DNA of 64,000 bases from Hemileia vastatrix (Eukaryota > Basidiomycota > Pucciniomycetes > Pucciniales > Zaghouaniaceae): positions 22,685,001 to 22,749,000 of the forward strand of contig JASXTE010000005.1 in assembly GCA_030280995.1 (NCBI GenBank), written 5' to 3'. A model generated the notes under the pieces. It did no database searches. It was not told the DNA's origin and worked only from the letters and a program-made list of their open reading frames with translations. Positions 10,601 through 50,575 of this stretch are shown one piece after another. Position 1 is the stretch's first letter. Each line of letters opens with the position of its first letter. The position numbers and the translations under genes were made by a program.

Positions 10601-10733
10601 AAAAAAACAAAACTTGATGAAAGGGCAGGATAATAAGTAAAGAGAAAGGTAGTTGGTGGAACTGGAAGGATAAATGCATGATGTAAGCATTATGAAATGC
10701 ATTCTGAAAAAGATAAAAGAAAAGTTGAGAAAA

Positions 10734-11595: not shown

Positions 11596-11711
11596 AGGGG
11601 GTATCAAAGTTGACCAATCCGCAATCAGGGATCAGGAATTATTTTTACCACAATCAGACATTATTAATTGCAGATAATTCTTATCCACTAGCCCCAGGGC
11701 TATTGGATAAG
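11596..11711. repeat. Element B left TIR and subterminal palindrome
   Basis: TIR core GGGGGTATCAAAGTTGACC, then CCGCAAT. At 11680-11711 lies a 15-bp-arm palindrome (CTTATCCACTAGCCC and its near-complement), matching the perfect palindrome at 24083-24114 in element A. Such a site near the transposase-side end is a likely binding or structural element. Confidence 0.7.
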
Positions 11712-11972
11712 GAATCCACAATAATGCATTATCCTTCCTCTTATCCCCAATTTCCATTCCTAATTCCTGAACCCAAACTCATCACATTCATGATGGATTT
11801 TTAAGAAAGTCACATGACTTATAATTGCTGATGCCATCCTTAAGTCTTTCCTCACTCTATGCTACTTAATTTTGGTGGTGAACACTTAAAGTTTTTTTCT
11901 ATCTACACTCCCAACTCCACATTTGGTGGTGAATTCCCACTTCCCTCATCACATAAGCCTTCCATCAACAAC

Positions 11973-13250
11973 TATAAAACACCTCTCTAATAGGCAGCTA
12001 TTTCACTCAACTATGAATGCTATTGCTTTGCTTTTAGCTCTTTACTAAAAAACAGACTCTGATTTGAAAGATTCTTTAGACTATATGTCTTTTCTTTCCA
12101 AAAAGTGTTACATAAACCCAAGGGGGCCAAATTTTCATCATTATCCCAGATATGATCTCCGCTCCATTCTCAAAATTCCTCAACTAAACTTCACTCTACT
12201 ATTTCAAACTTCTCCCGACTATTTCTTCAAACTTTATCAAATTATCTCCAAACATCCTATCTATCATAACAATTCTCAAAATAAACAGTGTGATCCTGCT
12301 ATTCAACTTTCTTTTGCACCATGTTTCTTTGGCTTAAATGGAAATGGTGCTTCTGTAAGACATTTGGAAAATCCCTTTACCATAGGATATGGTACCGTGA
12401 TATTATACACCAAGCGCTGTATGATTGACATCCTTTCCCTCAAGTCTCAAACCCTTACTTGGCCAGCTCCACAACAACCACTTAAATCCTCTCAAGTAAT
12501 GCAAGCTGAAGGTTTCCCTGGCTGTGTAGGATTTTTTGATGTAATGGCTATACCTTTGAGTTAAAAGCATGGTCATGATGGCAACCATTATTTTGATCGC
12601 AAAAAAAGGTTTCTTAAAAATGTTCTCCAACTTCACATCACTCATAAACTGACTTTTTATCTTCTTTCTATATACTCTCTTGCCATTCAACTTGTATGTG
12701 ATGTCAATAAAAATTTATTTCTTTTCACAGTGGCTGCCCTGGATTATGTCATGACTCGTCCATCTTCCAATGAGTGAGGATTTCTCAAACTCCCTACTCA
12801 TACTTTGATGAATCTCATTATCTCCTTGCAGACTCAGCATATGCAAGTGGAAAGTACATCATACCTACTTTCTGTGGTGCAACTTTAGAAAGTGACTTCA
12901 AAAACACCTATAATTATCACCTGGAACAATCAAGAGTACAGATTGAACATGCTATTGGTATTTTAAAGGGAAGATTTTATAGTCTCCAGGAGCTCAGAAT
13001 CCAATTTCAAAAAAAAAATTGGATATCAAAACAGCAAATCATTGGATCATGACTTGCTTTATACTTCATAATATCCTAGCTAATTTGAACAATGAGTGGA
13101 GTGATCTTTATGAAGAAGATGATCCTGAACCTGAACCAGCTCTCCCGCCCTTGATTCCCAAAACATTCTTTCCACTGGCATATGCTCTGTCATTATGCCT
13201 ATTACTCTCCAACATTTCTCTTTACCACCCTTTTAAACTATTTTTTCATA
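11973..13250 (+). pseudogene. DDE_Tnp_4 (Harbinger) transposase of element B
   Basis: Homologous along its length to the intact transposase of element A. The start ATG of A is ATA here (11973). A TAA follows at about 12042, and another TAA replaces a Gln codon right after MAIPLS (12562-12564). Frameshifts lie near 12720 and 13010. The intron equivalent to that in A is still visible after the DRKK motif. The second catalytic Asp (LLADSAY) and the Glu (IEHAIGILKG) are still readable at 12774-13020; the first Asp motif reads FFDVMAIPL. The 3' untranslated DNA to 13560 matches that of A and D. Confidence 0.85.
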
Positions 13251-14429
13251 CTCTCCCAACTTTCAACTCCCTTGTTTTTTTCACTTGTGTAATTTTAATG
13301 TTTCATGTTTTATTCACTTGTGTTGGTTATTTATTTTTTTTGCATAACTACAATTTTGAATTTTCTGTCAATTCTCTTTTTGGATGTCTCATTTGTTTCA
13401 TTTCATCAGCTCAACATGAAATCACATATTTTCTGCAATTGCATAATTTTTCACTGTCTCATTTTTTCATTCACCCCTCATATACATTTCCTCCTTGCCT
13501 CAAACATCTCTCAAATATTTCCAATTCTTCTATTTTCTCATTTCATCTCTCCAGGTAAGCCATTTTTTTTACTTGCTAACACCATGCAATATGGGGGGCA
13601 GAATTGCTAGCAAGTACACAACCTTCAACCCTAATTCATATCTAATTGAGCACAAATTGAGGTAGTGATGAAAAAATAAAAAACAAAGGTTGAACCTACT
13701 TTGAGAATACATTGAAAATACTTGAATATTGATTGGAGAAGCAGCTGAAAATTACTACAAAAAATCTTTATATCTGACTTACAGGAAGTTCTCAGGAAAT
13801 ATTGAAATAAGGATATCCCAAAGCCTAACAATGGCTGGAAAATGGTTAAGACTTTAAAAAATCATTTTTTTTGTAGATATTGATAAACAGTAAAAATCTC
13901 GTATGAGCTGAAGTAAAATCTGTTTTAAATAAATATGCACATTTTTTTACCTATCAATATATAGGGCAATCACCTAATATCATTAAAAAAATTTATGGAA
14001 AAATACTTAATGAACAGATATAGTTAATTGAATTTTATCAGTAAAATTTTTAAAAAAATAAATATTTATTCAAATTTTATGACTGCATATAATTAAATAT
14101 CACCAAGCCATAATATATATGTGTAAGGCACATTACTATTCTAAATAAATTAAACATAAATTTGGATGCCGGTATTATCTATGTAATTAATATAGATAAA
14201 TTCTTTTTACAATTAAGTAAAAAAAAAATTAGAAATATTATTTAAAAAAACAACTTAATTATGTCTTCAACATATCAAAATATTAAGGGAAAAATTTTAA
14301 TGATAATAAAACATATGGCCAATGAATAGTGCACTATTTTAGTTTTTTTTTTGTTTCAAGCTGTTAACTGTTCCTTGTCATTTAATATTATATATATGTA
14401 TATATATATATATATTTAAATTAGTTTAA
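13251..14429. other. Transposase 3' flank and AT-rich DNA
   Basis: Up to about 13560 this is the conserved region downstream of the transposase, including CATTTCATCAGCTCAACATG, also present in A and D. Beyond that it is AT-rich with an (AT)n tract near 14390. No gene seen. Confidence 0.4.
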
Positions 14430-15010
14430 CAAATCACCTTCCTTCTCATTTTCTACTCTTTCATAGATCTTATTCTTCTCACCTCTCACATCTCCTTGCT
14501 CCCTTACCCTTTATTATCTTATCCCATGTTGTATCCCCTCTCCATCTCTTGTACTTTTTCCCCTACACCCCTTTGTTATCCTCTCTCAATCAAAACAACT
14601 ATTTTTTCTCCCCTTATCACCCCTTTTACTTAATAGCAAGTGAATGGGGTGAGATAGAAGTTAAGATGGGTGGTGTGGAAGGTGAAAAGGATATATTTTG
14701 TTGAAGAGTGAAAGGGGTGGTATTCAGAGAATCAGGAGTGGAATCAGGAGATAAAGTGGTAGGGTGGGTTAGAGAGGATAGTAAGTGGGGTGGGTGAGAT
14801 GGGAAAATGTTTCAATAAAGAACAATGAGGTGAGACAGGGAGAGATAAAAAAGGGGTTAGCTTTAGTAATAAGGGTAGCAAGAGGAGTTGGGTGGGGTAA
14901 AAATTGACAAGAGAGATGTAGGGAGGTAGAATAAACAAGTTAAAAAGGGTGAAGAGTTTGGAAAACTAGGCTGGGAGAATTGGCAAGTGCAGAAAATTTA
15001 GAGGGATTGT
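14430..15010. repeat. Pyrimidine arm / purine arm switch in element B
   Basis: About 200 bases almost free of G (14430-14635) change abruptly, at about 14640, to about 350 bases almost free of C (14640-15010). The design matches 21240-22040 in element A, although the sequence is diverged. Confidence 0.55.
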
Positions 15011-16802
15011 GAAAAAGATGGGATGTGAGAAAATAGTAGCAAAGAATGTGGAAACAAATCAAAACATTTTCAGAGAAGTGGAGAAGGGATAAAGTGAGGC
15101 AGTAAAAAACTGAAGGTGAATCCTATCTTTTGGCTGAAAGATAGCATTCACCCTGTCAGTTAACACGACATTTTCTCTACTATAAAAAATAATCAGAAAC
15201 TCTTGTGTATGTCTATGTGTACACCTAAGTACATAAAACATATATCATGATTGACTTTTTTTAATAAATACTGATATTTATAGCAGAAAAATAATTAAAA
15301 AATAGAGAGAAACCATGAAAAATTAGTATATATTTATACAAATAATTTCACAAAATTCTTCTAATAATTATAAATGAAATAAAGAAAAAAAAATAAATAA
15401 ATTTTGGAAACAAGTTGTAACAAGAACCAAAAATATATTAACATTTTGAGCTATTATTTTCATGTTATTTATTAGGTAATTTTAATTAGATTTTAGTTTA
15501 ATTTTAAATACTTTTTTTGGAATTCAAAATAGCTGCTACCAGAATTATAGAATTCAAACAAAGGTTTAACATAAAATACATTATTATATTTAAAATTTTA
15601 CCTTTATTTATTTTTCTATAATAGCTATACATACATGCATAGCCACTAGTAATAAATAGAATTTTTGGCAGATTAAAAAAGATATCTGTCACAATATATG
15701 TACTATAGTATATTCTGTAAAAGAAGAATATTTCTTGAGTCCTTTCATTGCTTAAATTATTTCACACCAATGAATATAAACATTTTTTCGAAATTATATA
15801 TCTTAGATTTTATGGAACTTGGATTGAACTTCTAATGACATCCTTTCCTGACTGTAGCTCAAGATGACTTACTCCATGAGATTTTTTTTTTTTTTTTTTT
15901 TTGAATTTTAATATTATATTTTTCAATATATGTACAGTTATATTCTTTTATTGAACAGATTTATGACAAGTAATACAAAATTCTGAAAATAAATGTATTT
16001 TGAGGATTTTTTTAATTAATTTTAAATACAAAAATCTTCAATTTAATTTTATCATATTTGAATGTTCATTTTTTTACATATGGTGTAGAAACAACTGTTC
16101 TAAAATTTTTTTTTTCAACCTAATACATACAAAAAAAAGACATGCAATTTTCTTGTTATGTTTAAAATACTTTAAAAGAAGAATTTTTTGTTTTTAATAA
16201 AAAATATCTAGCACCTTCCAAGTATCACATTCTTTTTTTTAGCTTTTCCTTTCTAAGTTTATACAAAGCCTCAAGTGCCTAATTTGGATAATTTAAAAAT
16301 ATATAAAAAATCATTGATTCAAATTTTAATAGATTTCAAACTTACAAACTTAATATTTCTTTTTAATATTTTCTGTAAAGTTAAAATGAAGTCTTTTGGA
16401 TTGAGATGTCAAGAGAATAAATTCATTAAAGCATAGATTTTTTTATAAGGGAACCCAAAAAATCTACTTAGCTTTATTTTTTCACAAAATAAAAAATTAA
16501 TTTTCTGATGTTGGTTTAATAATTTAATGACACATTATATATATATATATATACAATTGAAATGAGAATTATAATGATAACATGGAATTGATAAATCATT
16601 AATATGTGTTTTTCACTTAAAAATAATGTCTGCACTGTGATTTGTCAATCAAATTGGTCAACACACTTGTTCTGGAAAAACAGATTCTGCACCTGCACTA
16701 TTTTATTTAATTTACTACTCAAGACTAAGAAATTGAAATATTTTTTTTTCTAATTATAATATTTTTGTAATTTCAGATTAATTAAAAATCAATTAGTAAA
16801 AT
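15011..16802. other. AT-rich stretch of element B left of the nested insertion
   Basis: Very AT-rich with homopolymer runs (T near 15880) and an (AT)n tract near 16540. No gene supported. The ATT at 16803-16805 is the target site of element A. Confidence 0.4.
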
Positions 16803-16805
16803 ATT

Positions 16806-16849
16806 AGGGGGTATCAATGTTGACCGATCCGCAATTAAATTAATTGCGG
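16806..16849. repeat. Element A left TIR with subterminal palindrome
   Basis: TIR GGGGGTATCAATGTTGACC followed by a perfect palindrome at 16829-16849 with 10-bp arms (CCGCAATTAA). Elements C and D carry an analogous palindrome on CCGCACTTA just inside their own TIRs. Confidence 0.8.
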
Positions 16850-17156
16850 AAAATAATCTGCATACCCCAATTATCTTCCACAATTATTTTTGCTAATAAT
16901 TGGGTTATTAGACACTTTACGTGTCAATGTTCACCACTTATCCGACATTTATTTACTCAATTTTCCATAACCACATCTTGGACAACTTTCTGGATATCCC
17001 AGCCTTCTACCTTGCTGCGCACTTCCATTCTCATCCCATCCTGTTCATTCTATCCGCTCAGAATTTCTCCCCATTTCATCTATTTGATTCTTCTCCTTTT
17101 CATCTCGCTATCTCATCTGCTTGTTTCTGCTCCTTTTCATCTTCATTTATAATAAC

Positions 17157-18554
17157 ATGCCTCGTCATCCTAGATCTTCTCAAAGGCAGCTATCACCCAG
17201 TTGTTCTTCAATTCCCACTACTTCCTCTTTTCCCCGCTCAGCCAAGAAATCAAAGACTGTTCAATTAAAAAAAGATGATCATCTCATTCTTATCAACTGG
17301 CTGAAAACCAAATCTAACTATGATTCTTGTTTTGGTACTGAGTATGCCACTAAAGTAGGACGGCCCCCCACATCAAAAGTTAATGGCTATCTTCTAATGG
17401 CAAATGAATTACGCAATAAGACCAAGGGAAGGATTGATCTTTTGCCTAAACAGATGTCTGAACGCTTCAAGCATTATTGAGCAAAATACAAGAAGGCAAA
17501 GGCTCTTTCATCTTCCACTGGTTTTGGGGTTACTGACATTGATATAACTAAGGGTATAAAATCCATAGACAATAAACTTGATTCTTTATGTCCTTACTTT
17601 AAAGAGATGGATGCAATTTTTGGAGAGCGAGCCAATGTTAATCCTGTAAACATGTTGGATGGAGAAGATCCTATCTCCGAACATGATGTCGAAGCAAATC
17701 TTTTCCCATCCTCTTCCTCCACTCAAGCCTCCCCTCTTCTAAATTCTACGAATCTAGATAGCTTTGCTATTGATCCTATTGGTGATTTAACCCAACCCAA
17801 TCTAACTCAGGTCTGTTTCTTTTATCTTATCAATTCTATTTTTTTATTTACTTATATTTTTCTTATTTCTTAAAAGGCTGATGAACAAACCCAGGATCCT
17901 CAATCAACTGAGTCTGAAGCTAGTGACAATGATGAGGAGGAAAATGCTACGTTGAACAAAAAGAGAAGGGCTTCAACTAGTCTAAATTTCCTCTCCCAAA
18001 GAAGACGAAAAAGTGATACTTCATCACAAACACCTTTTTCTTCGATGGAACAGTTTTTAGAGAAACGTGATGCTGGTAAGTGATATCATACCTCTTATTA
18101 CTTTACTCTGCTTTTCTTCTACTTTATGTTAATTTTTATTCTCACTCTAGAACAAGTGGAAATTGCTAAAGAGACACTGAGCTTTGAAAAGAAGAAATAC
18201 GAGCTCTCTTTAAGGAGGGATGACAGAGTACAAGATTTGGAAGAGAGGAAGTATGAGCTCTCCTTACGGAAGGATGATCGGATCCAAGATTTGGAGGAGA
18301 AGAAGTTTGAGCTCTCTTTACAGAAGGATGGTAGGGCCCAAGATTTGGAGGAGAAGAAGTTTGAGTTAACTCTTAGTATTGAAAAATCCAAAAATAAGGA
18401 AAAAACACTCGAGCATCAAAACTTAATGGAACAGATGAAGTATAAGCATGATCTCCAAGAAAGTTCTAAAAAGAAAGATTTCTTGATCGAATGAATTAAA
18501 GCAAACAAATCTGTTGAAGAAATAGAATGTTTAATGAAATTTTTTGTTGACTAG
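17157..18554 (+). pseudogene. Myb/SANT-like transposon protein of element A
   Basis: Three exons: 17157-17810, 17877-18075 and 18151-18554, with introns GTCTGT...AAAAG and GTAAGT...CTCTAG that keep phase. The start MPRHPRSSQRQ is shared with copy B. Residues about 40-110 form a basic Myb/SANT-like trihelix domain (HLILINWLKTKSNYDSC, GRPPTSKVNG, then LPKQMSERFK). Next come STGFG and an acidic middle. Exon 3 encodes a coiled coil of three to four 20-21-residue repeats (KYELSL..DDR.QDLEE). In Harbinger elements such a protein binds DNA and partners the transposase. Two TGA codons interrupt it: 17478-17480, where copy B has Gln, and 18492-18494, where B has Cys. It was otherwise complete, so it died recently. 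Confidence 0.8.
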
Positions 18555-18699
18555 TTTCTTTTATTTCTTTCGCACTTCATGTGTTCATATTTATTTGTAC
18601 ATAAATTTTACAATTATTTTCTGTATTTCTTGAAATATCGTATTTTAATGATAAATATTCTTTTTTTAAATAAAATTTTCAAGTCTCCTTTGAAAATTT

Positions 18700-19110
18700 G
18701 ACAATCCCCCACCCCTGGATTTTTTTGAAGTAAGGGGTGGGTATCACAAAAATTCTTTCATGTCATGAATCTTGAAAGTTTTATATGAAAATTTGGTTTT
18801 ACTACCCCCTGCATTTTACCGGTATCCTAAAAATTCTTACATGTCAAGAATTTCACAAGTCTTATAAAAAATTTTGGCACAACCCCCCATGGATTTTATT
18901 GAAGTAAGGGACGGGTATCAAAAAAATATTTACAAGTCAAAAAAATTCTATATCTGTTTAAAAAAATTGGCAATACTCTCCCCTGCATTTTATTGAAGCA
19001 AGGGGTGGGTATCACCAAAATTTTTCTAAGTCATCAATTTCACATGTCAGATTTGAAAATTTGGCAATACCCCCCCCCCCCTGCATTTTATTGAAGTAAG
19101 GGGTGGAAGT
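18700..19110. repeat. Tandem array with TIR-like motif (element A)
   Basis: About five units of 80-95 bp, each with a C-rich run, CATTTTATTGAAGTAAGGGG and (TGGGTATCA)C, then TTGACATGT-like DNA and AAAATTTGGCA. The AAGGGGTGGGTATCA core resembles the TIR (TTAGGGGGTATCAA). The array separates the Myb and Tet genes. Related arrays lie at 28840-29160 (B) and 44760-44945 (D). Confidence 0.75.
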
Positions 19111-19406
19111 CATCTGAATTTAATATAATTACATAAATTATTAAATAAATATCTAATATATATCAATTTACCTAGTTTAATGTAATGACAATCCCTCAAG
19201 CCAAAATGCAGACCAAGTCGAGAAACATAAGTTTGGGACTTTCTACAGGTATAGGAAATAGGAACCCCATGAAAAAAATAAATGTTATCATGATTACCTG
19301 TTATACAACACAAGGTCGATGGCTCATCACATTATTTGAGAAAATTGATATATAAAAAATATTTATTAAAAATTTATGAAAAAATATAAAATTTTCGATG
19401 ACAACT

Positions 19407-20656
19407 CTAATCCCCATACTTTTTGGATCTAGATAAAGTTTTTTTAAATCGAATAACTTTACCTTCTTTCTTTACCTTATTGATTCTTTGTATCAACTTA
19501 TTACTGATTTGAAATGAGCAACCGAAATGAGTGAAATCTTGACAGGATTTCAAACCAGGAGGAGCTTTGGTCGTTTGATAATTATCCTTAGAAGAATTCC
19601 AAATAGTTTCGATGATACCATTTCCCAAACCAAAATCAATGATGCACCGGTGGTCTGGAAAATATAAACCATGTCCTTTGATTTTAGCTGGAGATGGTAT
19701 TGGGTGGCCAGTTATTGGATTGATATATGAGAATATTCCAAAAGTAAGAAAATTGGCATCATTCCTATCGATATGAATCCTATTGTGGAATCCAGAATGA
19801 GTGATAATAACATTAGAAAATAAAAGATATTTGTGGCTGATATCTTCCCATTCAGAGTCACACCAATTCGGTATTCCAACTTTGGTTGCAAGGTCATGAT
19901 TTTTTTCAAATGCCTTATTACAGAGCTTTTTGAGTCGAAGAGCAAGAAAAGAATTAAAGTAGGGTAGAGTGTCCCATAAGCGAAAATCTTCATCTTTTTG
20001 TGCTTTAGTGATATTATTGAGCAATGAATATATACCTATATAATTGAAATAAGTGAAATGATATTAAGAATGGAACAAAAATTATTAGACATACCAAGAG
20101 AATATCCTTTGACAAAACCAGGTCTCCAACCAAAACCAATCATGATACCACCCAACAAATTCTTATTCCTTATAGGTAATCGAACCAAAGCCATTTGATA
20201 AAGAGTTATGATGAGATCGGATAGTTGATTAAAAGCTTCATCTTTTACACCATCGAATGAATGAACTTCCAAAATGAATTGAGGCTTAAAAGCATTGCTG
20301 ATAACTGCAACAACTTGATCATCTCCAAATTCTGTTAGATATTTGATATCTTCTGGTAATTTTTTCGGATATTGATTTTTTTTATCTGCTTTAGTTTTAT
20401 AAAAAAAAATGTTTGGGATATGACGAAAATAACTTTCGCAGAGAGACTTTTTTTTTAAATATCTTTTCTTCTGATGAGACTGATTATCTTTAATTTTTTT
20501 TGATGATTTAGAAGATGATTGTATGGAAGTTGATTTCAAAGAAGATGATAGAGTTGATTTCAAAGAAGATGATAGAGATGATAAAGATGAAGATGATAAA
20601 GAAGATAAAGATGAAGATAAGAGAGAAGTAAGGGGTGAATCAGAAGAAGAAGACAT
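19407..20656 (-). CDS. Tet-like 2OG-Fe(II) dioxygenase of element A
   Basis: Two exons, 20656-20095 and 20035-19407, with an intron 20094-20036 (GTATGT...ATATAG) that joins G|GT in phase, giving 396 residues with no stop. A Ser/Leu-rich low-complexity N-terminus (1-55) and a basic patch precede the conserved part. The C-terminal half has the double-stranded-beta-helix pattern of fungal TET/JBP proteins: an H-x-D metal motif (HID, residues 275-277), GHGLYFPDHRCIIDFG, IETIWNSS, and GCSFQIS. TET/JBP enzymes oxidise 5-methylcytosine or thymine with Fe(II) and 2-oxoglutarate. The expected third ligand, His in the DNHQTT of copy D, is Tyr here (DNYQTT), and the expected 2OG-binding Arg position is His. 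Activity is therefore doubtful. Family assignment rests on the motif pattern; a search is needed. Confidence 0.75.
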
Positions 20657-21239
20657 TTTTTTGATCTGAAAAAAAAATTAATTGTCAATAAAATTTTAAC
20701 TCAAATTTTTTTCAAAAATAATTCCTACCTAATAATAAAAAAAGCTGTTTTTTTATTTTAAAAATAAAATTGAAAAAAAAAACCAAAAAATTAGTAAAAA
20801 ATTTTCCAAAAAAAAAAATTATAAAAAAAAACCTGAGGTTTTATTTTAAAAAACACAATCAAAGCAAAATCCTATTAAAAAAAATTAATAATTAAATTCA
20901 TTCAAAAAAGAAAATTTCAGTAAGAATTAAAACACAAAAAAAAAAATTAAAAATTAAAAGTGAACCTGAAGATTGGTTATTAAAAACCTTCTCACAAGAT
21001 CATGAAAAAAAAAATCAGTAAAATCAAAATAAAAAATTAAAAAAATTATTTAATTAAAATCAAAATCACAAAAATTAATTATAGAAAAAATAAAAATAAA
21101 ATTATAAACCTTTTTTGTTTTGTAAATAAGAGGGACAGTCCTTATCAGCAAAAAAATTTTTTTTTTTTCTATATTACTGCAAAAAAAATAAAAAAAATAA
21201 TCAAAATTAGAAACAAAAATTTGTTAGTATCTTTATTTG
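20657..21239. other. A-rich spacer upstream of the Tet-like gene
   Basis: Very A-rich with runs such as AAAAAAAAA. Should hold the promoter of the Tet-like gene; no motif stands out. Confidence 0.35.
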
Positions 21240-22040
21240 AAAGTTAGTAACCCATCTTTATCTCCCATTAAAGTCCCCTTTTCCCCCTCAAATGCTCTCC
21301 TTGCCTGCCTCAAAATCCCCCTGAAATACCCCCCTTTCCCCCCTCTTTAGGTCCCTCATCACCCTCCTTCCCCCCTCATTAGCTGCCTCAAACCCCCCCC
21401 CATTCCCCCCTCTTTAGCTCCCTCAAACCCCCCCCATTCCCCTCACCTTAGGCGCCTCAAACCCCCCCCATTCCCCTCTCCTTAGGCGCCTCAAACCCCC
21501 CCCCCATTCCCCTCTCCTTAGGCACCTCAAACCCCCCCCATTCCCCTCTCCTTAGGTACCTCAAACCCCCCCTTCCAATCTCCTTACCCCCTCCCAAACC
21601 CTTTCCCAAACACCCACCCCCCCCCCCCCCCCTGTTTATTAACGAACGATCTGTAACGATCGTTCGTTAATAAACTGGGGGGGGGGGGGGGGTAGAGGAG
21701 GATATAATGATTAGGTAGGGGGGGAAGGGGGGGTGTTTGAGGCGCCTAAAGAGAGGGAAAGGGGGGGTTTGATGTGGGTAAAGAGAGGTGAAGGGGGGGG
21801 GGTTTGAGGCGCCAAAAGAGAGGTGAAGGGGGGGGGTTGAGGGACATAAAGAGAGGGGAAGGGGGGAGTATTGAAGCACCTAAAAAGAGGGGAAAGGGGG
21901 TGATGAGGGACCTAAAGAGGGGGGAAAGGGGGGATTTGAGGCAGCTAAAAAGGGGGTAAAAAGGGGGTCAGAGACAGGTAAAGAGAGGGAAAAAGTGGGG
22001 CCTTGAGGATCATAAAGAGAGGTGAAGGAGAGAAAAAAAA
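21240..22040. repeat. Pyrimidine/purine inverted arms around a hairpin (element A)
   Basis: Left arm (21240-21633) is C/T-rich with repeats of CCCCATTCCCCTCTCCTTAG and GGCGCCTCAAACC, ending in a long C run. At the centre is a perfect 18-bp inverted repeat (21634-21651 / 21658-21675, GTTTATTAACGAACGATC) with loop TGTAAC. The right arm (from 21676) is the G/A-rich counterpart, starting with a long G run. It lies between the Tet and transposase genes. The reading frames inside are a by-product of the repeats. Confidence 0.8.
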
Positions 22041-22099
22041 ACAAAAAAATAAAAAGATAAAAAAGAGAAAAAAGCAAAACAAAAATTAGTTTACCCTAG

Positions 22100-22177
22100 A
22101 ACAAAAATAATAGAAGCACTTACAAAAAAAACAAAAAAAGCAAAAAAAAAAAGCAAAAAAAAAGCAAAAAAAAAGCA

Positions 22178-22208
<31 letters not shown>

Positions 22209-22215
22209 AATCATG
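22100..22215. repeat. GCAAAAAAA microsatellite
   Basis: About seven units of GC followed by seven to ten A, then a long A run. In element A, downstream of the transposase gene. Confidence 0.7.
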
Positions 22216-22558
22216 ATTAGCAAATAAAAAACCATGAAAAAAGAAAAAAAATGACCTACCTGGTGAGTTGAGTTGAGAAAATAAATGCAACCAAAATATT
22301 TGAGGGATGTTTGAGGAGAATAGGAAAAGGATATGAGTGATGAATGAAAAAAAAAATCACTGACAAAATATGCGATATAAGAAAATATGTGATTTCATGT
22401 TGAGGAAGTGAAAGAAAACCAATGAGCAATCCAAAAAAAAGATATTCACCGTAAATTCAAAAAAAAAAATGAATATGCAACAAACCAAAATACAAAACCA
22501 AGTGATTAAAGTACACAAAGAGGACATTTGGAAAGTATGAAAACATAAAAATTAAAAA

Positions 22559-23818
22559 TTAAAAGGGTGAAGAGAAATGTTGAAGAGTAATTGGCATTAT
22601 AATGGGGCGTATGCCGGTTGATTGAATGATTTGTGAATCAAGGGAGGGGAGTGCCAGTGGTGGTTCAGGATCCTCTTCTTCATAAAGATCATTCCACTCA
22701 TCCTTTAAATCAGCTAGAATATTGTGGAGTATTACGCAAGTCAAGATCCAATGATTTGCAGTTTTGATCTCCAATTTTTTTTGAAATTGGATTCTGAGCT
22801 CCCGAAGACTAGAAAATCGTCCCTTTAAAATACCTATAGCATGTTCAATTCGTACTCTTGATTGTGCAAGGTGATAATTAAATTTAGTTTTGGGGTCATT
22901 TTCTGAAGTTGCACCACGGAAAGCAGGTATAATGTACTTTCCACTTGCATATGCTGAGTCTGCAAGGAGGTACTGAGATTCATCAAAGTATGATTCAGGG
23001 GATTGAGAAATCCTCATTCTTTGGAAGACGGAAGAGTCATGACATGATCCAGGGCAGCCACTGTGAAAAGCAATAAATTTTTTATTGACATCACATACAA
23101 GTTGAACGGCAATAGAGTATCTAGAAAGAAGATTAAAAGTTAGATTGTGAAAGATGAGAACTTGGAGAAGATTTTGAAGAAACCTTTTTTTGCGATCAAA
23201 ATAATGGTTGCCATCATGAGCAGGCTTTTGACTCAAAGGGATGGTTGTGCCATCAACAAAACCTATACATCCAGGGAAACCTTCAGCTTGCATTACTTGA
23301 GAGGATTCAAGTCGCTGTTCTGGAGTTGGCCAAGCAAGAGTTTGAGACTTGAGGGAAAGGATAGCAATCATACAGCGCTTGGTGTATAATATCACGGTAC
23401 CATATCCTATGTTAAAGAGATTATCCAAACGTCTTACGGCAGCACCATTTCCATTTGAGCCAAAGCGACATAGAGCAACAGCAAGTTGGATGGCAGGATT
23501 ACGCTGTTTGTTATGAGAATTGTTATGGAAGATAGGATGATCGGAGATGAGTTGATAAAGTTTGAAGAAAGAATTGGGAGAAGTTCTAAAAAGTTGTGTG
23601 AAGTTTAAATGAGGAATGTTGAGAATGGAGGCCAGATCATATCGGGGATCATGATAAAGATTTGGCCCCCTGGTGATGATGTAACGCTTTTTGGAAAGAA
23701 AACACATATAAGCTAAAGCATCTTCCAAATCAGAGTCAGATTTATAGTAAAGAACTAAAAGAAAAGTGATAGCATTCATTGTTGAGTGAAGTAGCTTCCT
23801 AGTAGAGAGGTGTTTCAT
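22559..23818 (-). CDS. DDE_Tnp_4 (Harbinger/PIF) transposase of element A
   Basis: Intact. The first ATG in frame is at 23818 (MKHLSTRK); this start aligns with MPSSLSNRDK of copy D, while upstream codons have only TTG. An intron of 63 nt at 23183-23121 (GTTTCT...TTTCTAG) restores DRKKRYSIAVQL; it is a multiple of three without stops, so the unspliced frame is also open. The mature protein is about 398 residues. Catalytic triad: Asp in GFVDGTTIP, Asp in LLADSAYASG, Glu in RVRIEHAIGILKGRF, plus SCHDSSVF. An N-terminal helical region (SSNGNGAAVRRL) serves DNA binding. It would excise and insert elements with GGGGGTATCAA ends; it could also mobilise copy B. Confidence 0.92.
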   Translation of the reverse strand: MKHLSTRKLLHSTMNAITFLLVLYYKSDSDLEDALAYMCFLSKKRYIITRGPNLYHDPRYDLASILNIPHLNFTQLFRTSPNSFFKLYQLISDHPIFHNNSHNKQRNPAIQLAVALCRFGSNGNGAAVRRLDNLFNIGYGTVILYTKRCMIAILSLKSQTLAWPTPEQRLESSQVMQAEGFPGCIGFVDGTTIPLSQKPAHDGNHYFDRKKRFLQNLLQVLIFHNLTFNLLSRYSIAVQLVCDVNKKFIAFHSGCPGSCHDSSVFQRMRISQSPESYFDESQYLLADSAYASGKYIIPAFRGATSENDPKTKFNYHLAQSRVRIEHAIGILKGRFSSLRELRIQFQKKLEIKTANHWILTCVILHNILADLKDEWNDLYEEEDPEPPLALPSLDSQIIQSTGIRPIIMPITLQHFSSPF

Positions 23819-24082
23819 TGTTGCCGGTGGAAGGGTTAAGTGATGAGGGAAGTGGGAATTCACCGCCAAATGTGCAGTTGGGGTGTGTAGATAGAAAAAA
23901 AACTTAAGTGTTCGCCACCAAAATTAAGTAGCATAGAGTGAGGAAATACTTAAGGATGGCATCAGCAATTATAAGTCATGTGACTTTCTTAAAAATCCAT
24001 CATGGATGAGATGAGTTTGGGATCAGGAATTAGGAATGGAAATTGGGGTATAAGAGGCGGGATAATGCATTATCGTGGATTT

Positions 24083-24198
24083 CTTATCCACTAGCCCTGG
24101 GGCTAGTGGATAAGAATCTTCCGCAATTAATAATGTCTGATCCTGGGAAAAAAAATTCCTGATCCCTAATTGTGGATCCCTGAACATTGATACCCCCT
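24083..24198. repeat. Element A right TIR and perfect subterminal palindrome
   Basis: 24083-24114 is a perfect palindrome with 15-bp arms (CTTATCCACTAGCCC, 2-nt centre). The TIR ends CATTGATACCCCCT at 24198, followed by the ATT target copy and then element B sequence. Confidence 0.8.
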
Positions 24199-24201
24199 AT
24201 T

Positions 24202-25639
24202 AACTTGTTTAATGGATATAATTATATATTCATTGCATCTTACTTCACAATAAAATCCCTCACATAATAATCTCTATGAACACAATAATAAGATGATAGA
24301 GAAAAGTCCACTTTAATCTATCATTAAATTCCCTAAAAAATAACAAAAATAAAACTTTAAAAGATAAAAATAAGAATAAGAATTTTTATAATCTGTTTGG
24401 TACGCTCAGGTAAACACTTTTGTTATCCTTAATTATTTAATTCATGCAAAATAAAGTGTTCAGTTTAAATTTTTAAAGGATTTTTTTCATTTATATTATT
24501 ATTACCTTTGAGGTTTCAGATTTTATTCAATCATTTTTTTTCAAAACACAAATTCACTGAGTAGCATTGAATTTTTATGACTCTTTTTAATCCCTGAACC
24601 AAATTAAAATAGGCTTACTGAATATTGGCTGATTGAATGAATAGTGCTTCAGAATTTCAAGTAAGTATTTTACTTCTAAAATATATCTGATACAATTATT
24701 ATGTATTTAAGTACTTATTTTAATCTAAAAAATATAGATATTAATTTTGTCACTCCTTTTATCCTTTTTATGCATTTATAACATTTATAAGGAAGATAAG
24801 ACCCTGATACTAGAAGAATTAACCTTTATTTAAGATACATAATCACATTCTGTTCATTTTTAATTATTTTAGAAAAGGAGAAGTGAAAGTGCCTCATTGA
24901 GTCAATTTTTTTTTTAAAAAAAACATTACTATGTTTTATTTTATGGTTTTGTGTATATAATACAGTATGATAAATTATAATATTTGAGAGGAAGTATTTC
25001 TATTTTTTTTGAAATATAATTCATTTAAATAGAAAATAAATTCATGCACTGGCTAAAAATTCCTGTAAAACATCTAAGAAAACTTCATTTTGTATGGTAT
25101 CATCAATAAGACTGAAGATTTGAATTCTGAAAAAATGGATTATTAATAAAGAATTCACTGGTGTTTTTTAATGTTCTCAGTAATATTTACTAAATTTATT
25201 ACAAATTTTAAAAGTAATTCTCATGAAAGATATAAAGTAATTTTATGTCTTCTTATTCTTCAACCTTCATTCAAAAAGATGATCTAAATACTTTTCATCA
25301 AAAAGTTATTGTTGATTGAGAATATTGTTAGTATTTCCTTATTCTGATTTAAATGAGCTTTGAATACGCTTTCTTAATGCTTTCAATAAAGACTCATCCA
25401 TCCTTGGTCAATATTTCAAGATGAGTTCAAAGTAAATCTCAGTCTGATTTCAGCCTGATTTCAGTCTGAGGTCCATCTGACTTCAAGTTGAGGACTTGCT
25501 AGTAAGTCCCTCCCAAATATTGTGTGGTGTAATAATTTCTTTTTTCTCCTTTTTTCTCCTTTTTTTTTGTCCTTTTTTTTTTTCTTTTTCTTTTTTTTTG
25601 TCCTTTAAGTGCTTTTTTTTTGTTTTCAAGGTTAGACTA
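24202..25639. other. Element B DNA right of the nested insertion
   Basis: AT-rich, no reading frame supported. Near 25435-25500 there are short tandem variants of AGTCTGATTTCAGCCTGA. Continues element B across the element A insertion. Confidence 0.4.
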
Positions 25640-26165
25640 ATTTTTTTTTTCTTTTTTAACCCCTCCATCATCCCCCTTTCCCACATCCTTGTCTGCCTTC
25701 ATACCCCCATTTCTCCCCTTCTTGGTATCCTCAATCCCCCCTTTACCCCTTCCTTAGCCACCTCAAGTTCCCCCCTTTACCCCCTCAATCCTCCACTTCC
25801 TACTAATTGAATCACTATTGATTTGATAAGTTAATGAATGATTGTTCTTGATTGTTCATTAACTTATTGAATCTCTAATGATTCTATTAGTTAGAGAACA
25901 ATTGTTAGAAATCGTTCATTAACTTATTGGATTGATACCGATTTGATAAGTTGGCAGTAGGGGGTTTGAGGCAGGTTTGAGGGGGTGAAGGGGGGGTTTG
26001 AGGCAGGAAAGGAGGGGTTAAAGGGGGGGACTTGAGGTGACCAAGGAGGGGGGAAAGGAGGGGTCAAAGGGGGGATTGAGGAGTTAAAGGGTGGTTTTAG
26101 TTTTATAGGCATCCAAGGAGGGTTTATAGGGGGGGATTTGAGATTTTGGGAGGTTTTGAAGCACT
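25640..26165. repeat. Second pyrimidine/purine inverted arms (element B)
   Basis: C/T-rich arm (25640-25800), a central AT region with several inverted copies of AAGTTAATGAA and TTCATTAACTT (25830-25950), then a G/A-rich arm (GGGGTTTGAGG repeats, 25960-26165). Same order and place, between transposase and Tet gene, as 21240-22040 in A. Confidence 0.7.
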
Positions 26166-26801
26166 TTGGGGGGCATTTTGAAGCAAGAAAAAAAATACTA
26201 ATATCTGCTTTTTAATTTTTTTTAAAGATTTTTTTTTATTTCCCTTAGTTTCTGGACATTTCCCCCTGTTTCCAAAATAAATCAGGTAATTTATTTTTTT
26301 ATTTGTCTTTATTTTTTCAAATAATTATTCTGAAATTTACTGAATTCAATTTTTTTATTTTTTTTATTTTAATAAATTAAATTGAAGGAAATTAAGTGGT
26401 ATTTCCAATAGCAGGTATGTATTTTTTTTTTGTTTTTTTTTGCAATTAAATTTACTGAATTTATTTTTATTTTAGTTTTTTTTGATTTACTCTTTTTTTT
26501 TTTGGTGATTTTGTTTGTTTTTTCAAGAACTTTAGCTGGTATTTCCAAAACCATTCAGGATTTTATTTTGATTTTTATGTTTTTGAAAATTATTTAACAA
26601 ATTTTTTTTCTTTATATATATATATATATATTTAGAAATTTTTTACAAGGATATTACCTGGTATTTCAAACATATTTCAGCTTTTTAACCAAAAAAAAAG
26701 GTTTTCTTTTCAATTATTTTACAGATAATTTTTTATTGTTTGAGGGTTTTTTTATAATTTTAATTTTTTTTGTTTTAATTTTTTTTTTCCAGGAGGTTGC
26801 T

Positions 26802-28110
26802 ATGGAAAATTTAACTTGCTCATCTTCATTATCATAAATTTCTTCTGAATCATCTTTATCCTCACTTTCTTCCTTGTCCTCAAATCAAGAAAGCTCCAAG
26901 GATAACCATCAAATATATTCAAATTCTTCTTCTTTATCTTTACTTTCTTCTATCTCTTCAATGTCCTTCAATTCTATTCCTTCCATCAATAAATCTTTGC
27001 TTTCCTTACCAGAAAAAAAAGCAGAAAATCATGGAACCAGCTAAAGAATCAAGCAATTCAAAGACAAAATTTTATCAAAATAGAAAGTTAATTAGGAAGA
27101 AGATATTTTGTGAAACTTTCTTTGGACATTTGGACAATCTCAAATTTTATAAGACTTCAATATCAAATGTTAAGAAAAAAGATTTTTACAAAAACATTAA
27201 AAACCTTAAAGAAGGCAGTATTAATTTCATTGTTGCAGTTGTCAATGACAGATACAAAACTCAATTAATCTTAGAAGCTCATTCATTTAATTGGAAAAAT
27301 GATGTGTTTTTTTCCAGCTTTCTGATTTAATTTCTACTCTCTATCAAATGGCTTTGGTTTGACAAACCTTTTCAAATAAAAACTGATTTCTGGTGTCATG
27401 AAAGGTTTTGGTTGGAAACCAGGATATGATCAAGGAGTTTTTTTTGGTTTGTAAATATTTTTTTATTATAAGTAATTTTTAATTTTGTAATATATTTCAG
27501 GAATTTATTCTTTATTGAAAAATTTGAAACTGGAGCAAATGGAAGAAGATCTGAAACAATGGAATTCTTTAGGATCATTTAATATTTTCTTGTCAAATTG
27601 ATTTAAAAAGTTATGTATTCAAGCTTTTCAAAAAAACCATAAACTTGCTTTAGAATCTGGTTTACCAAATTGGTCTGATTCTGAATGGGAAGAAGCAATA
27701 AATGCTTATGTTTTTTTTCTAATGTTATCATCACTTATAATTGATTATACAATAATTTTCATCTAGATAAACATGATAAGAATTGTCTAACATTTGGAAT
27801 TTTCTCTTATATTAATCAAGAGACTGGTCTTCCAATTCCATCACCCTCTTCTGATGAGGGACATGGCCTTTATTTTCCTGACCATAAATGTATTATTGAT
27901 TTTGGTGGTGCCAATGGAATAGTTGAGACTATATGGAATTCTTCTCAACATTAGCATCAAAAAACTAAAGCCCCTCCATCTTTAGTTTCTTATCAAGGAT
28001 TTACCCATTTTGGCTGTACATTCCAAATAAATGAAGGTCTTATTAATTGTATTAATAATCAAAAAAAAATTTAGATAAAAAATTTGTTCTAAGTAGATCT
28101 GTCAAGTATG
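26802..28110 (+). pseudogene. Tet-like dioxygenase of element B
   Basis: Same gene as 19407-20656, decayed. ATG at 26802 begins a Ser-rich N-terminus that hits TAA after about 11 codons. 27031-27330 recovers the conserved middle (RKKIFCETFFGHL, TQLILEAHSF). An acceptor ending TTTCAG opens exon 2 at about 27500 (GIYSLL). Exon 2 carries PNWSDSEWEE, an H-x-D motif (FHLDKHD), GHGLYFPDHKCIIDFGG, VETIWNSS and THFGCTFQI, interrupted by stops. One TAG sits directly before the His that would be the third metal ligand (*HQKT). That His is retained here, unlike in A. Confidence 0.8.
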
Positions 28111-28269
28111 GTAACTTAAATATATATAAAAATTTTCTATCATTAAATATTTTCATCCTTTTTTTCTTTTTTTTTTCTTTTATTGAATTTTTTTTATTTT
28201 TTTATTTATTTTTATTTAATTTTTTTAAATTTTCCTTTTTATTTTCCTTGTTTTCAATTTTATTTTTCC

Positions 28270-28830
28270 TTTTAAATTTTTTTTGCATTTGAATTTGGAT
28301 TTTTCTCTTCAAATTATTTTTTAAGTTTATTTCAAGATAGTTTCCTGGTTTTATATGATGGTTTATCTGGCCTTAGGTTGCTCTACTGGCTATTATATAA
28401 AATTGGAAAACTTGATTCGGACTGGTGAAAATAATTTGTTGATGAAATTTTCATTTTCCATTTAAATTTGGATTTGTCTCTTCCAATTATTTTTTAAATT
28501 TATGTCAAGATAGTTTTCTGGCTTTATATGATGGTGCAACTGGCCTTAGGTTGTTCTACTGGCTATTATATAAAATAAGAAAGCTTGATTTAGACTGGTT
28601 AAAATAATTGGTTGATAATTTTCATTTTTACTTTTTTTTCATTTAATTTTGGATTTTTTTCTTCCAATTATTTTTTAAAGTTACGTCAAGATAGTTTTCT
28701 GGTTCTATATGATGGCGAATCTGGCCTTAGCTTGTTCTACTGGATATTATATAAAATTGGAAAACTTGATTCCAACTGGTGAAAATAATTGGTTGATGAA
28801 GTTATTATTTTTAAATTTTTTTCCATTTGA
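28270..28830. repeat. Three tandem ~175-bp repeats (element B)
   Basis: Three copies of a unit containing CAAGATAGTTT(C/T)CTGG and CTGGCCTTAG, followed by TACTGG(C/A)TATTATATAAAAT, at about 28333, 28507 and 28685. Between Tet and Myb genes of element B. Confidence 0.7.
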
Positions 28831-28839
28831 TTTATTTAA

Positions 28840-29160
28840 TTCAATAAATTTCAGGGGGGGTATTGCCAAATTTTCATATCAGACTTTAAAAATAAATTTT
28901 GACTTGAAAATTTGGTGATAACCTTCCCTTAATTCAATAAAATACAGGGGGGGGGGTATTGCCAAATTTTCATATGAGACTTTCAAAAATAAAATTGAAC
29001 TGAAATTTTGGTGATAACCATCCCTTACTTCAATAAAATTCAGGGGCGAGTATTGCCAAAATTTCATATAAGACTTTCAAAATTCTTTACTTGAAAGAAT
29101 TTTGGTGATATCAGACCCTTAGTTCAATCAAAAGCAGTGGTGGGATTGGGAAATTTTCAA
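28840..29160. repeat. Array with TIR-like motif (element B)
   Basis: Three to four units of about 95 bp reading GGTATTGCCAAA..TTTCATAT..GACTTT and TTGGTGATA.CC.TCCCTTA.TTCAATAAA: the inverse orientation of the array at 18700-19110, as expected if B mirrors A. Confidence 0.75.
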
Positions 29161-29362
29161 ATGTGACTTGAAAATTTTTACTAAAAAAGAATTATTAACA
29201 TTAAACATTCTTGAAAATTTTATTTAAAAAAGAATTTATAACATTAAAAAATGAAAATTCAACTAATGATGGATAGAGTAAAAAAAATACAGGAAATTTA
29301 GATGATAAAATTTTATGTACAATTAATTATGAACAGTTGAAGTGTGAGAGAAATAAAACAAA

Positions 29363-30751
29363 CTAGTCATCAAAAAATTTCTTCAAAAGTTCAATTTCCT
29401 CAACAGATTTATTAGCTTTAGCACATTCTATCAAGAAATCTTGCTTTATGAAATTTCCTTCACAATCATGCTTATGTTTCATCTGTTCCATGAGGTTTTG
29501 ATGCTCAAGTGTTTTCTCCTCTTTCTTTGATTTTTCAATACTTAGAGATAACTCAAATTTCTTCTCCTCCAAGTCTTGTGTCCTATCATCCTTCCATAAA
29601 GAGATTTTTTACTTCCTCTCCTTCAAGACTTATTCCCTATCATCCTTCCATAAAAAGAGTTTGAACTTCCTCTCTTCCAAATCATGTACCCTGTCATCCC
29701 TCCTTATAGAGAGCTCATATTTTTGCTTTTCAAACTTTAGAGTCTCTTTAGCAACTTCCACTTGTTCTAGAGTGATAATAAATATTAACAAAAAGTAGAA
29801 GAAAAGCAGAGTAAAGTATTAAGAGGTATGGTATCACTTACCAGCATCATGTTTCTCCAAAAATTCTTCAATAGAAGAAAAAGGGGTTTGAGATGAAGTA
29901 TCACTTTTTCTTCTTCTATGAGAGTGGAAATTTAGACTACTTGAAGCCCTTTGCTTTTTGTTCAAGGTCACATTTTCCTCCACATCATTGTTGCTGGCTT
30001 CTGACTCAGTTGATTGTGGCTCCTGTGTTTGTTCTTCAGCCTTTTTAGAAATAAGAAAATGTAAATAAAAAAGAATTGGTAAGATGAAAAAAAAAACCAT
30101 ACTTGAGTTAGATCAGGTTGGTTTCATCATCATAAGGATCTATTGAAAAGATATCTTGATTTGTGGAAGTTAAATGAGGGGAGGCTTGAGTAGAAGAAGA
30201 AGGAAAAAGATTTCTTTCAGCATCATGTTCTGAGATAGCATCTTCACCATCCAACATGTTTGCAGGATTAACATCAGCTTGCTCTCCAAAAATAGCATCC
30301 ATCTCTATAAAGTAAGGACATAAAGAATCAAGTTTATCATCTATGGATTTGATGCCCTTACTGATATTAAGGTCAGTAATACCAAAACCAGTAGAAGATG
30401 AAAGAGTCTTCACCTTCTTGTATTTGGCTTGATAATACTTGAAGCATTCAGACATCTGTTTAGGTAAAAGATCTATCCTTCCCTTGGTCTTATTCCGCAA
30501 TTCATTGGCCATTAGTTGATGACCATTAACTTTTGATGCAGGGGGCCATCCTACTTTAGTTGCATTTTTGGTACCAAAACAAGAATTATAGTTAGATTTA
30601 GTTTTCAGCCAGTTGATAAGAATGAGATGATCATCTTTTTTAATTGAACGGTCTTTGATTTCTTGGCTGAGCAGGGGAAAGAGGGAGTAGTGCAATTTGA
30701 AGAACAACTGGGGAAAGGCTGCCTTTGAAAAGATCTATGATGACGGGGCAT
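29363..30751 (-). pseudogene. Myb/SANT-like protein of element B
   Basis: Begins MPRHHRSFQRQ at 30751. One base is missing from an A run near 30652, shifting the frame; the Myb/SANT-like domain then continues (NWLKTKSNYNSC, LPKQMSECFKYYQAKYKK) to about 30108. The end of exon 1 is also shifted. Exon 2 lies around 30040-29842, ending at a GTAAGT donor, and exon 3 runs from about 29765. Exon 3 holds the coiled-coil repeats with two stops, then KQDFLIECAKANKSVEEIELLKKFF. It supplies the residues missing at both TGA codons of copy A. Confidence 0.8.
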
Positions 30752-31062
30752 GTTAAGATGATTGAAGATGAAAAGAAGAAAAAACAAGCAGATGAGATAG
30801 CAAGGTGTTCTGAATGGAGGGAATAGACCGGGTGAGATGATAATAGGAGAACGCAGCAAGGTAGAAGGTATATCCAGAGAGTAGTCAAAGATGTGGTTAT
30901 GACAGAAAGTTGTCCAATATGTGGTTATGAAAAATTGAGTAGAAAAATGTTGGATAAGAGGTCAACTTTGACATGTAAAATGTCTAATAACCCAATTATT
31001 AGCAAAAATAATTGTGGAAAATAATTGGGGTATAAGGATTTTTATCTGAAATTAATTTATTT

Positions 31063-31089
31063 GCAGATTGGTCAAATTTGATACCCCCC
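31063..31089. repeat. Element B right TIR
   Basis: TTGCAGATTGGTCAAATTTGATACCCCCC, inverse of the left TIR with a few changes (last base C where A has T), followed by ATT. Confidence 0.8.
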
Positions 31090-44759: not shown

Positions 44760-44945
44760 TTCACCAAAATATTTACAAGTCAAAAAAATTCCATATCTGT
44801 TTTAAAAAATTGGCAATACTCTCCCCTGCATTTTATTGAAGCAAGGGGTGGATATCACCAAACTTTTTCTAAGTCATCAATTTCACATGTCAGATTTGAA
44901 AATTTGGCGATACCCCCCCCTGCATTTTATTGAAGTAAGTGGTGG
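44760..44945. repeat. TIR-motif array fragment in element D
   Basis: About two units nearly identical to 18925-19110 of element A (CATTTTATTGAAGCAAGGGG, GATATCACCAAA). Starts at the breakpoint within the transposase gene. Confidence 0.8.
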
Positions 44946-45243
44946 AAGTCATCTAAATTTAATATAATTACATAAATTATTAAATAAATATCTAATATAT
45001 ATCAATTTCACTAGTTTAAAGTATTGACAATCCCTCATCCAAAATGCAGATCAAATCTAGAAACAAAAGTTTTGGACTTTCCACAAGTATAGGCTAGAGG
45101 AACCCCATGAAACAAATAAATGTTATCATGATTACCATTTATACAACACAAGGTCGTGGGCCCATTACTTTAGTTGAGGAAATTGATACATAAAAAATAT
45201 TTATTAAAAATTTACAAAAAATATAAACTTTTTGATGACAACT

Positions 45244-45875: not shown

Positions 45876-45879
45876 TATA

Positions 45880-50570: not shown

Positions 50571-50575
50571 AATAA

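What the first reader, a model, noticed from the sequence alone, without database searches (positions are those of the whole stretch)
16806..24198. Harbinger-like transposon carrying a TET/JBP-like dioxygenase as a third gene
Element A has matching TIRs and flanking ATT. Between them lie a Myb/SANT-like gene, an intact DDE_Tnp_4 transposase and a 396-residue spliced gene with the H-x-D and C-terminal pattern of fungal TET/JBP enzymes. Harbinger elements are known for transposase plus Myb-like protein. As I recall, fungal TET/JBP genes have been linked to KDZ-type transposons, and I see no KDZ transposase here. A 5mC oxidase built into a cut-and-paste element could let it lift or read cytosine methylation at its own ends or at targets.
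Basis: partly seen in the sequence, partly recalled or inferred. Interest (0 to 1): 0.92.

Follow-up and report, generated by a model that had tools for sequence, protein, structure and literature searches.

The report
Harbinger transposon carrying a TET-like enzyme
A cut-and-paste DNA transposon in what looks like a rust fungus really does carry a gene for a TET-like enzyme, the kind that oxidises methylated cytosine, in very many copies; transposons of this sort were described in print in late 2025, so it is a new example and not a new kind.

Summary
Element A (16806-24198) has matching terminal inverted repeats, flanking ATT, an open DDE_Tnp_4 transposase (E 2.6e-26), a spliced 396-residue Tet-like 2OG-Fe(II) oxygenase (PF20515, E 5.5e-37; H275-x-D277, H357) and a weakly Myb/SANT-like gene broken by a stop in this copy. 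A lies inside an older inverted copy, B, with the same three genes. In the 747.6-Mb assembly 30-base probes count 3,853 transposases, 4,046 TET exon 2 and 1,681 TET exon 1; on one contig 34 of 51 exact exon-2 hits have the transposase on the expected side within 6 kb, against 0.49 by chance. But Kojima 2025 (PMC12730594) already reports TET-bearing Harbinger elements of rust fungi and proposes escape from methylation silencing: a new member of a known kind. Possibly new: copies with nearly identical ends carry a full TET, TET exon 2 only, or no TET; the TETs of A and B diverged far more than their transposases; the duplication reads better as 3 bp than as TA. Enzyme activity is untested.

The parts
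16803..16805 (.). left target-site duplication ATT
   Evidence: sequence; same three bases on both sides in 16 of 18 element pairs
16806..16837 (+). left terminal inverted repeat
   Evidence: arm pair I23
17157..18494 (+). ORF1, weakly Myb/SANT-like; exons placed by eye at 17157-17810, 17877-18075, 18151-18494; in-frame stop in exon 1 in this copy
18680..19106 (.). tandem repeats of about 94 nt between ORF1 and TET; similar block in B at 28836-29180
19407..20656 (-). TET/JBP-like 2OG-Fe(II) oxygenase gene, exon 1 20656-20095, intron 20094-20036, exon 2 20035-19407
21329..22022 (.). C-rich and G-rich minisatellite arrays in inverted orientation around a palindrome
22562..23818 (-). DDE_Tnp_4 transposase, intron 23183-23121
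24167..24198 (-). right terminal inverted repeat
   Evidence: arm pair I23
24199..24201 (.). right target-site duplication ATT
11596..31089 (-). older copy B of the same family, interrupted by A; transposase remnant 11910-13146, TET remnant about 27260-28028, ORF1 remnant 29308-30807; flanks ATT/ATT
44761..47092 (+). fragment of a copy with TET exon 2 only, 94% identical to L027

Best explanation
Element A is a young copy of a very abundant PIF/Harbinger-superfamily DNA transposon of a rust-like fungus, carrying a TET/JBP-like (Tet-like 2OG-Fe(II)) dioxygenase as a third gene. Shown: gene content, termini, a duplication best read as 3 bp, the same gene order in the older copy B, genome-wide linkage of TET and transposase, an HxD...H triad, and constraint on the TET exon. 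Inferred: the transposase cuts and pastes the element with ORF1 as DNA-binding partner, and the TET enzyme oxidises 5-methylcytosine on transposon DNA, easing CG-methylation silencing so that the family is expressed and moves. It probably acts in trans on the whole family, since copies without a full TET are common and some are as close to A as the full copies. I put the anatomy at about 0.95 and the anti-silencing role at about 0.6; the figure below is for the whole statement.
For: Profile matches. Same three genes in A and B. Transposase and ORF1 in 10 of 10 fetched TIR pairs, TET exon 2 in 8 of 10, exon 1 in 2 of 10. Probe counts 3,853 / 4,046 / 1,681 with reversed controls 0. 34 of 51 exact exon-2 hits and 12 of 14 exact exon-1 hits on contig C2 have the transposase on the expected side. 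Exon 2 dN/dS 0.29-0.63 in 36 pairs. Minority C-to-T changes 10.9 times more frequent at CpG than elsewhere, as expected of methylated DNA. Kojima proposes the same role for this group, and in wheat stem rust CG methylation is associated with young transposons (PMC8444563, passages).
Against: No activity, expression or methylation data. Of six full-TET copies only A has a TET without stop or frameshift, and none of the six has all three genes open in the parts checked. 6 of 9 exon-2 copies have an internal stop. Copies without any TET are as close to A as full copies. Singleton CpG changes show no difference between classes, but the counts are 0-7 per copy. The predicted structure was too poor to show the fold.
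Confidence: 0.6

Rival explanations
1. The TET gene is now a mostly idle passenger: captured long ago, useful for a time, and being lost, while transposase and ORF1 alone spread the family.
For: Exon 1 is counted 1,681 times against 4,046 for exon 2. Copies with exon 2 only (6 of 10) and without TET (2 of 10) are common among fetched pairs. 6 of 9 exon-2 copies have a stop.
Against: dN/dS of exon 2 is 0.29-0.63 in all 36 pairs, and 0.22 / 2.1 between the TETs of A and B, so TET has been constrained over long times. By spacing, the full-length arrangement is the most frequent among recent-looking linked copies on C2 (16 of 34).
Confidence: 0.2
2. The TET gene is a separate mobile element that happened to land inside a Harbinger element.
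For: The interior changes abruptly between copy classes, and a second, divergent TET-like ORF lies at 41563-42042.
Against: The same gene sits at the same place and orientation in B and, by probe linkage, in many copies. In A I noticed no second set of matching termini around TET in the inverted-repeat lists, of which only the longest pairs are shown. Kojima likewise found no termini around transferred TET genes.
Confidence: 0.04
3. The enzyme does not erase methylation but makes a different modified base on the element that shields it or marks it for transposase or ORF1.
For: Related enzymes have other chemistries, and Kojima says that another activity cannot be excluded for this type.
Against: No further modifying enzyme was recognised among the ORFs scanned; no product data.
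Confidence: 0.12

Closest known systems
TET+ Harbinger / PHISTA families of Pucciniales (Kojima 2025, PMC12730594)
   Same: Harbinger-type DDE transposase, TET/JBP gene and a third protein between TIRs; Puccinia species and Austropuccinia psidii.
   Different: PHISTA is given a TA duplication and a third protein without Myb/SANT domain; here a 3-bp AWT duplication fits better (16 of 18 pairs) and the third protein is weakly Myb/SANT-like. Sequence relation not tested, supplements not available.
Nuwa and other Harbinger elements (as described in Kojima 2025)
   Same: 3-bp duplication, transposase plus Myb/SANT-type partner.
   Different: The two-gene elements lack a TET gene; the duplication here is AWT, while the TWA of classical Harbinger is recalled.
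KDZ elements with TET/JBP genes
   Same: TET/JBP gene beside a transposase.
   Different: Transposase here is DDE_Tnp_4.
Puccinia striiformis protein PSHT_15981 (P0001)
   Same: Only database hit to the TET protein at E 0.001, 35% identity over 344 columns, shares the HxD and THFGCSFQ motifs.
   Different: Its genomic context is unknown here.

Membership tests
PIF/Harbinger superfamily | DDE_Tnp_4-type transposase | tested here: met
   PF13359 E 2.6e-26, 92.6 bits against cut-off 24.8
PIF/Harbinger superfamily | terminal inverted repeats | tested here: met
   36-nt arms, 86%; 17,365 core matches in the genome
PIF/Harbinger superfamily | 3-bp target duplication | tested here: met
   AAT or ATT on both sides in 16 of 18 pairs, P 0.0007 if the variable base were independent; the classical TWA consensus (recalled) is not what is seen
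PIF/Harbinger superfamily | Myb/SANT-type partner protein | tested here: inconclusive
   PF13837 in 5 of 12 rows, best E 0.0018; 13.3 bits against cut-off 27 in a window copy; model too poor
TET/JBP dioxygenase (PF20515) | profile match above cut-off | tested here: met
   E 5.5e-37, 128.3 bits against 27
TET/JBP dioxygenase (PF20515) | HxD...H iron-binding triad | tested here: met
   H275, D277, H357, aligned with P0001
TET/JBP dioxygenase (PF20515) | double-stranded beta-helix fold | tested here: inconclusive
   exon-2 model pLDDT 43, no match at E 0.001
TET/JBP dioxygenase (PF20515) | oxidation of 5-methylcytosine | not testable with these tools
   none
PHISTA (Kojima 2025) | TET/JBP gene inside a Harbinger element of a rust fungus | tested here: met
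   rust host only inferred
PHISTA (Kojima 2025) | 2-bp TA duplication | tested here: inconclusive
   TA can be read in 17 of 18 pairs, but the 3-bp AWT reading explains the extra match in 16 of 18
PHISTA (Kojima 2025) | third protein without Myb/SANT domain | tested here: inconclusive
   weak Myb/SANT-like matches
PHISTA (Kojima 2025) | transposase within the PHISTA clade | not tested
   sequences are in supplements that I could not open
KDZ elements | KDZ-type transposase | tested here: not met
   the transposase found is DDE_Tnp_4; the low-complexity ORFs at 16844, 16912 and 22086 were not scanned

The most novel reading that the evidence does not exclude
The TET gene sits in a swappable slot: in one Harbinger family with nearly identical ends and transposase, the interior alternates between a full TET, a 5'-truncated TET, no TET, and (in B) a much older TET lineage, so the family loses and regains methylation-erasing genes in an arms race with silencing. 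The family also joins a 3-bp duplication and a Myb-like partner, as in Nuwa, to a TET gene, which the published definition of PHISTA does not allow for.
Probability: 0.35. Interest if true: 0.55.

Novelty: new member of a known kind. Interest (0 to 1): 0.36.

Why it matters
It offers a very high-copy natural experiment: one transposon family in one genome with full-TET, truncated-TET and TET-less copies side by side. Methylation maps over these classes would test whether a transposon-borne TET erases silencing marks, and whether it acts on its own copy or on the family. In the paper listings I saw I found no experimental test of this in rust fungi; Kojima states that the function is not experimentally validated.

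Tried and rejected
Structure prediction of TET exon 2 and of the ORF1 piece of B gave low-confidence models, so the fold searches with them are not used. Sequence searches against the PDB gave nothing useful for TET, ORF1 or the ORF1 alignment. The database search with the whole TET protein scored only the 7,990 candidates sharing most words, probably drawn by its Ser-rich start, and gave one hit; with residues 70-380 it gave none. NCBIfam added only below-cut-off IS-family matches to the transposase. I first took 44766-45887 (92% to A's TET region) as a TET shared with a different element; one search shows that it is part of a fragment of A's own family, so it is no evidence of exchange. CpG changes per copy class were too few to compare. 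Stop counts for the 3' transposase exon were made in a wrong frame and are replaced. Genome counts of the class-2 and class-3 interiors were asked for but did not complete, so those classes rest on 10 fetched pairs and on spacings. The paper searches with 'TET JBP' do not match the printed form 'TET/JBP' (0 occurrences even in Kojima's paper), so their emptiness on that term means little; two searches were added for that reason.
Full report
What is there. Element A runs from 16806 to 24198. Its ends are inverted repeats (36-nt arms, 86% complementary) beginning AGGGGGTATCAATGTT, and it is flanked by ATT on both sides. From left to right it holds ORF1 (+, 17157-18494, exons placed by eye), a tandem-repeat block, a TET-like gene (-, 20656 to 19407), C-rich and G-rich minisatellite arrays in inverted orientation, and a DDE transposase (-, 23818 to 22562). 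The TET gene has one 59-nt GT..AG intron, identical in two other copies. Its 396-residue product matches PF20515, Tet-like 2OG-Fe(II) oxygenase, with E 5.5e-37; the transposase matches PF13359, DDE_Tnp_4, with E 2.6e-26. The iron-binding triad H275-x-D277 and H357 is present and aligns with a Puccinia striiformis protein, 35% identical, the only database hit at E 0.001; a search with residues 70-380 alone found none.

The third gene. In A it has an in-frame stop in exon 1; I searched its pieces apart and mended nothing. In 13 other copies checked for exon 1, seven have no stop there, so open copies of that exon exist. The exon-1 pieces of A match no Pfam family up to E 0.1; the C-terminal piece gives two matches below their cut-offs. 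Nine database relatives were found (eight from sources without a name, one from Puccinia sorghi). Of the 12 rows of an alignment of relatives and window pieces, 5 match PF13837, Myb/SANT-like DNA-binding domain, best E 0.0018; one window copy alone gave 13.3 bits against a cut-off of 27. Structure prediction did not help.

Nesting. A is inserted into an older, inverted copy of the same family, B (11596-31089, flanks ATT/ATT). B has a transposase remnant at 11910-13146, a TET remnant at about 27260-28028 and an ORF1 remnant at 29308-30807, in the same order and orientation as in A. The three genes between the same ends therefore occur twice in this window.

Genome-wide test. The assembly has 747.6 Mb. 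The TIR core with up to 1 mismatch has 17,365 matches against 19 for the reversed control. Thirty-base probes with up to 3 mismatches count 3,853 transposases, 4,046 TET exon 2 and 1,681 TET exon 1 of A's type, each with 0 for the reversed control. On contig C2 I compared the listed exact matches: 34 of 51 exon-2 hits have a transposase hit on the same strand and expected side within 6 kb; random placement gives 0.49 on average (largest 5 in 1,000); none lie on the wrong side or opposite strand. The other 17 of 51 have no exact transposase hit in the list; inexact ones were not listed, and the list stops at 100 places, near 34.2 Mb of the 36-Mb contig. The 34 spacings fall at about 1.6 kb (7), 2.2 kb (11) and 3.2-3.6 kb (16). 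Of 14 exact exon-1 hits on C2, 12 have a transposase hit 2.9-3.7 kb downstream. A PF20515 search of the genome had 10,849 first-look candidates; 150 were scored and all 150 pass the cut-off. It does not separate this family from other TET lineages.

Structure of the family. From the 100 places listed (C2, first 10.3 Mb) I took by eye the 10 plus/minus pairs 5.5-7.4 kb apart; three shorter ones were also fetched; unpaired, distant and nested ends were not examined. All 10 have transposase and ORF1 hits, 8 have TET exon 2, and 2 have exon 1 as well. With A they fall into three classes. Class 1 (A, L023, L030) is full length. Class 2 (L021, L022, L024, L026, L027, L028) follows A to about 20050, inside the TET intron, then has about 850 bp without a match to TET exon 1, and rejoins A at 22165; L021 also lacks part of the transposase. 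Class 3 (L025, L029) follows A to 18955, has 1.5-1.7 kb of other sequence with no ORF longer than 128 aa, and rejoins at 21773; these interiors were not scanned against Pfam. In the shared ends the copies are 91-99% identical to A; L025 and L029 are 98.6-99.4%. One search added three class-1 copies, chosen because they carry both TET exons.

Selection and decay. Exon 2 has dN/dS of 0.29-0.63 in all 36 pairs of nine copies (A, L021-L024, L026, L027, L030 and the window fragment at 44761-47092; L028 was left out because of gaps); five sites are fixed between full and exon-2-only copies, four of them synonymous. Full-length TET of A, L023 and L030 gives 0.41-0.68 on few changes. Six of the nine exon-2 copies have an internal stop, and one of the stop-free ones (L024) has lost the D of HxD. 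Of the six full-TET copies only A has a TET with neither stop nor frameshift, and none of the six has TET, transposase and ORF1 exon 1 all open. Between A and B, dS is 0.27 for a transposase piece (171 codons) and 0.54 for an ORF1 piece (94 codons) but 2.1 for a TET piece (69 codons, near saturation), with TET dN 0.22; nucleotide identity is 84%, 79% and 68%. The simplest reading is that A and B carry TET genes that parted long before their transposases did, that is, exchange of the TET part. It rests on one pair of elements and on short pieces.

Link to methylation. In the aligned ends of 11 copies, minority C-to-T changes (seen in one or two copies, both strands) hit 91 of 1,278 cytosine observations in CpG and 95 of 14,582 elsewhere, a ratio of 10.9, highest at TCG. 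The direction was judged from the majority base, not an outgroup. CpG observed/expected is 0.37 in A, 0.35 in the whole window, 0.49 in the TET gene and 0.79 in the Saf4/Yju2 gene nearby. This fits mutation of methylated cytosine; Kojima cites TCG hypermutation in Pucciniomycotina. In wheat stem rust CG methylation is strongly associated with young transposons (PMC8444563, passages only). Singleton counts per copy show no difference between TET+ and TET-less copies, but they are 0-7 CpG events each.

Target duplication. Among 18 elements with both ends read (A, B and 13, three), 16 have the same three bases, AAT or ATT, outside A...T termini (B's right terminal base is C); two have AAT on one side and ATT on the other. 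If the variable base were independent on the two sides, 16 or more of 18 has P 0.0007. Of 47 distinct flanks, 46 have A, 45 T and 46 A at positions -4, -2 and -1 before GGGGG, with A or T at -3. A reader who takes GGGGG as the terminus would see a TA duplication in 17 of the 18. Whether the published TA duplications of PHISTA hide the same pattern is a lead, not a result.

Comparison with what is known. Kojima 2025 (PMC12730594; I read parts 1-5 of 7, that is, the main text to the start of the references, and the figure legends; figures and supplements were not available) describes TET/JBP genes in 11 lineages of fungal DNA transposons, among them 15 TET+ Harbinger families ('PHISTA') from five Puccinia species and Austropuccinia psidii, and proposes escape from methylation-based silencing. 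The finding is thus a member of a described kind. I file it as a TET+ Harbinger element and leave PHISTA membership open, since the duplication and third protein do not clearly fit and the tree was not tested. A whole-word search for dioxygenase, Harbinger, transposon and TET found Kojima's paper and one on cancer; JBP, transposase, fungi and Puccinia found it and two others seen only in the listing; 5-hydroxymethylcytosine with Pucciniales found only it. Of PMC12774611 and PMC12210899 I saw passages.

Host. A rust fungus is inferred from the Puccinia hits, the low GC of the window and the large assembly.

Mechanism. Shown: anatomy, past mobility (duplications, copies, nesting), TET linkage, and constraint on TET. 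Inferred: that the enzyme oxidises 5mC on transposon DNA and so counters silencing, in trans for the family. The abundance of copies without a full TET agrees with sharing in trans, and equally with slow loss of a gene no longer needed.

Noticed in passing
21329-22022: C-rich (34-nt unit) and G-rich (33-nt unit) minisatellite arrays in inverted orientation around a palindrome (arms 21616-21651 and 21658-21693), upstream of TET. The palindrome is also in L023, and in L030 with further nested palindromes; B has similar pieces at 25802-26064.
   Followed up: partly
41563-42042: A second, divergent Tet-like ORF (PF20515, E 3.5e-15; 25% identical to A's exon 2) in a nest of other Harbinger-type fragments at 37.4-47.6 kb.
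   Followed up: no
10144-11420: Old fragment resembling an exon-2-only copy (74-82% to L027), so that interior may be old.
   Followed up: no
L031, L032, L033: Short elements (about 0.4-1 kb) with the same TIRs. The 17,365 TIR-core matches against 3,853 transposase-probe matches suggest many short, non-coding relatives.
   Followed up: no
48801-61001: LTR retrotransposon with direct repeats 92-97% identical about 11.3 kb apart and gag/protease, reverse transcriptase and integrase ORFs at 53221-59946 on the minus strand.
   Followed up: no
31973-33136: Host-type Saf4/Yju2 gene (PF04502, E 5.4e-67) beside element B, with CpG observed/expected 0.79 against 0.37 in A.
   Followed up: no
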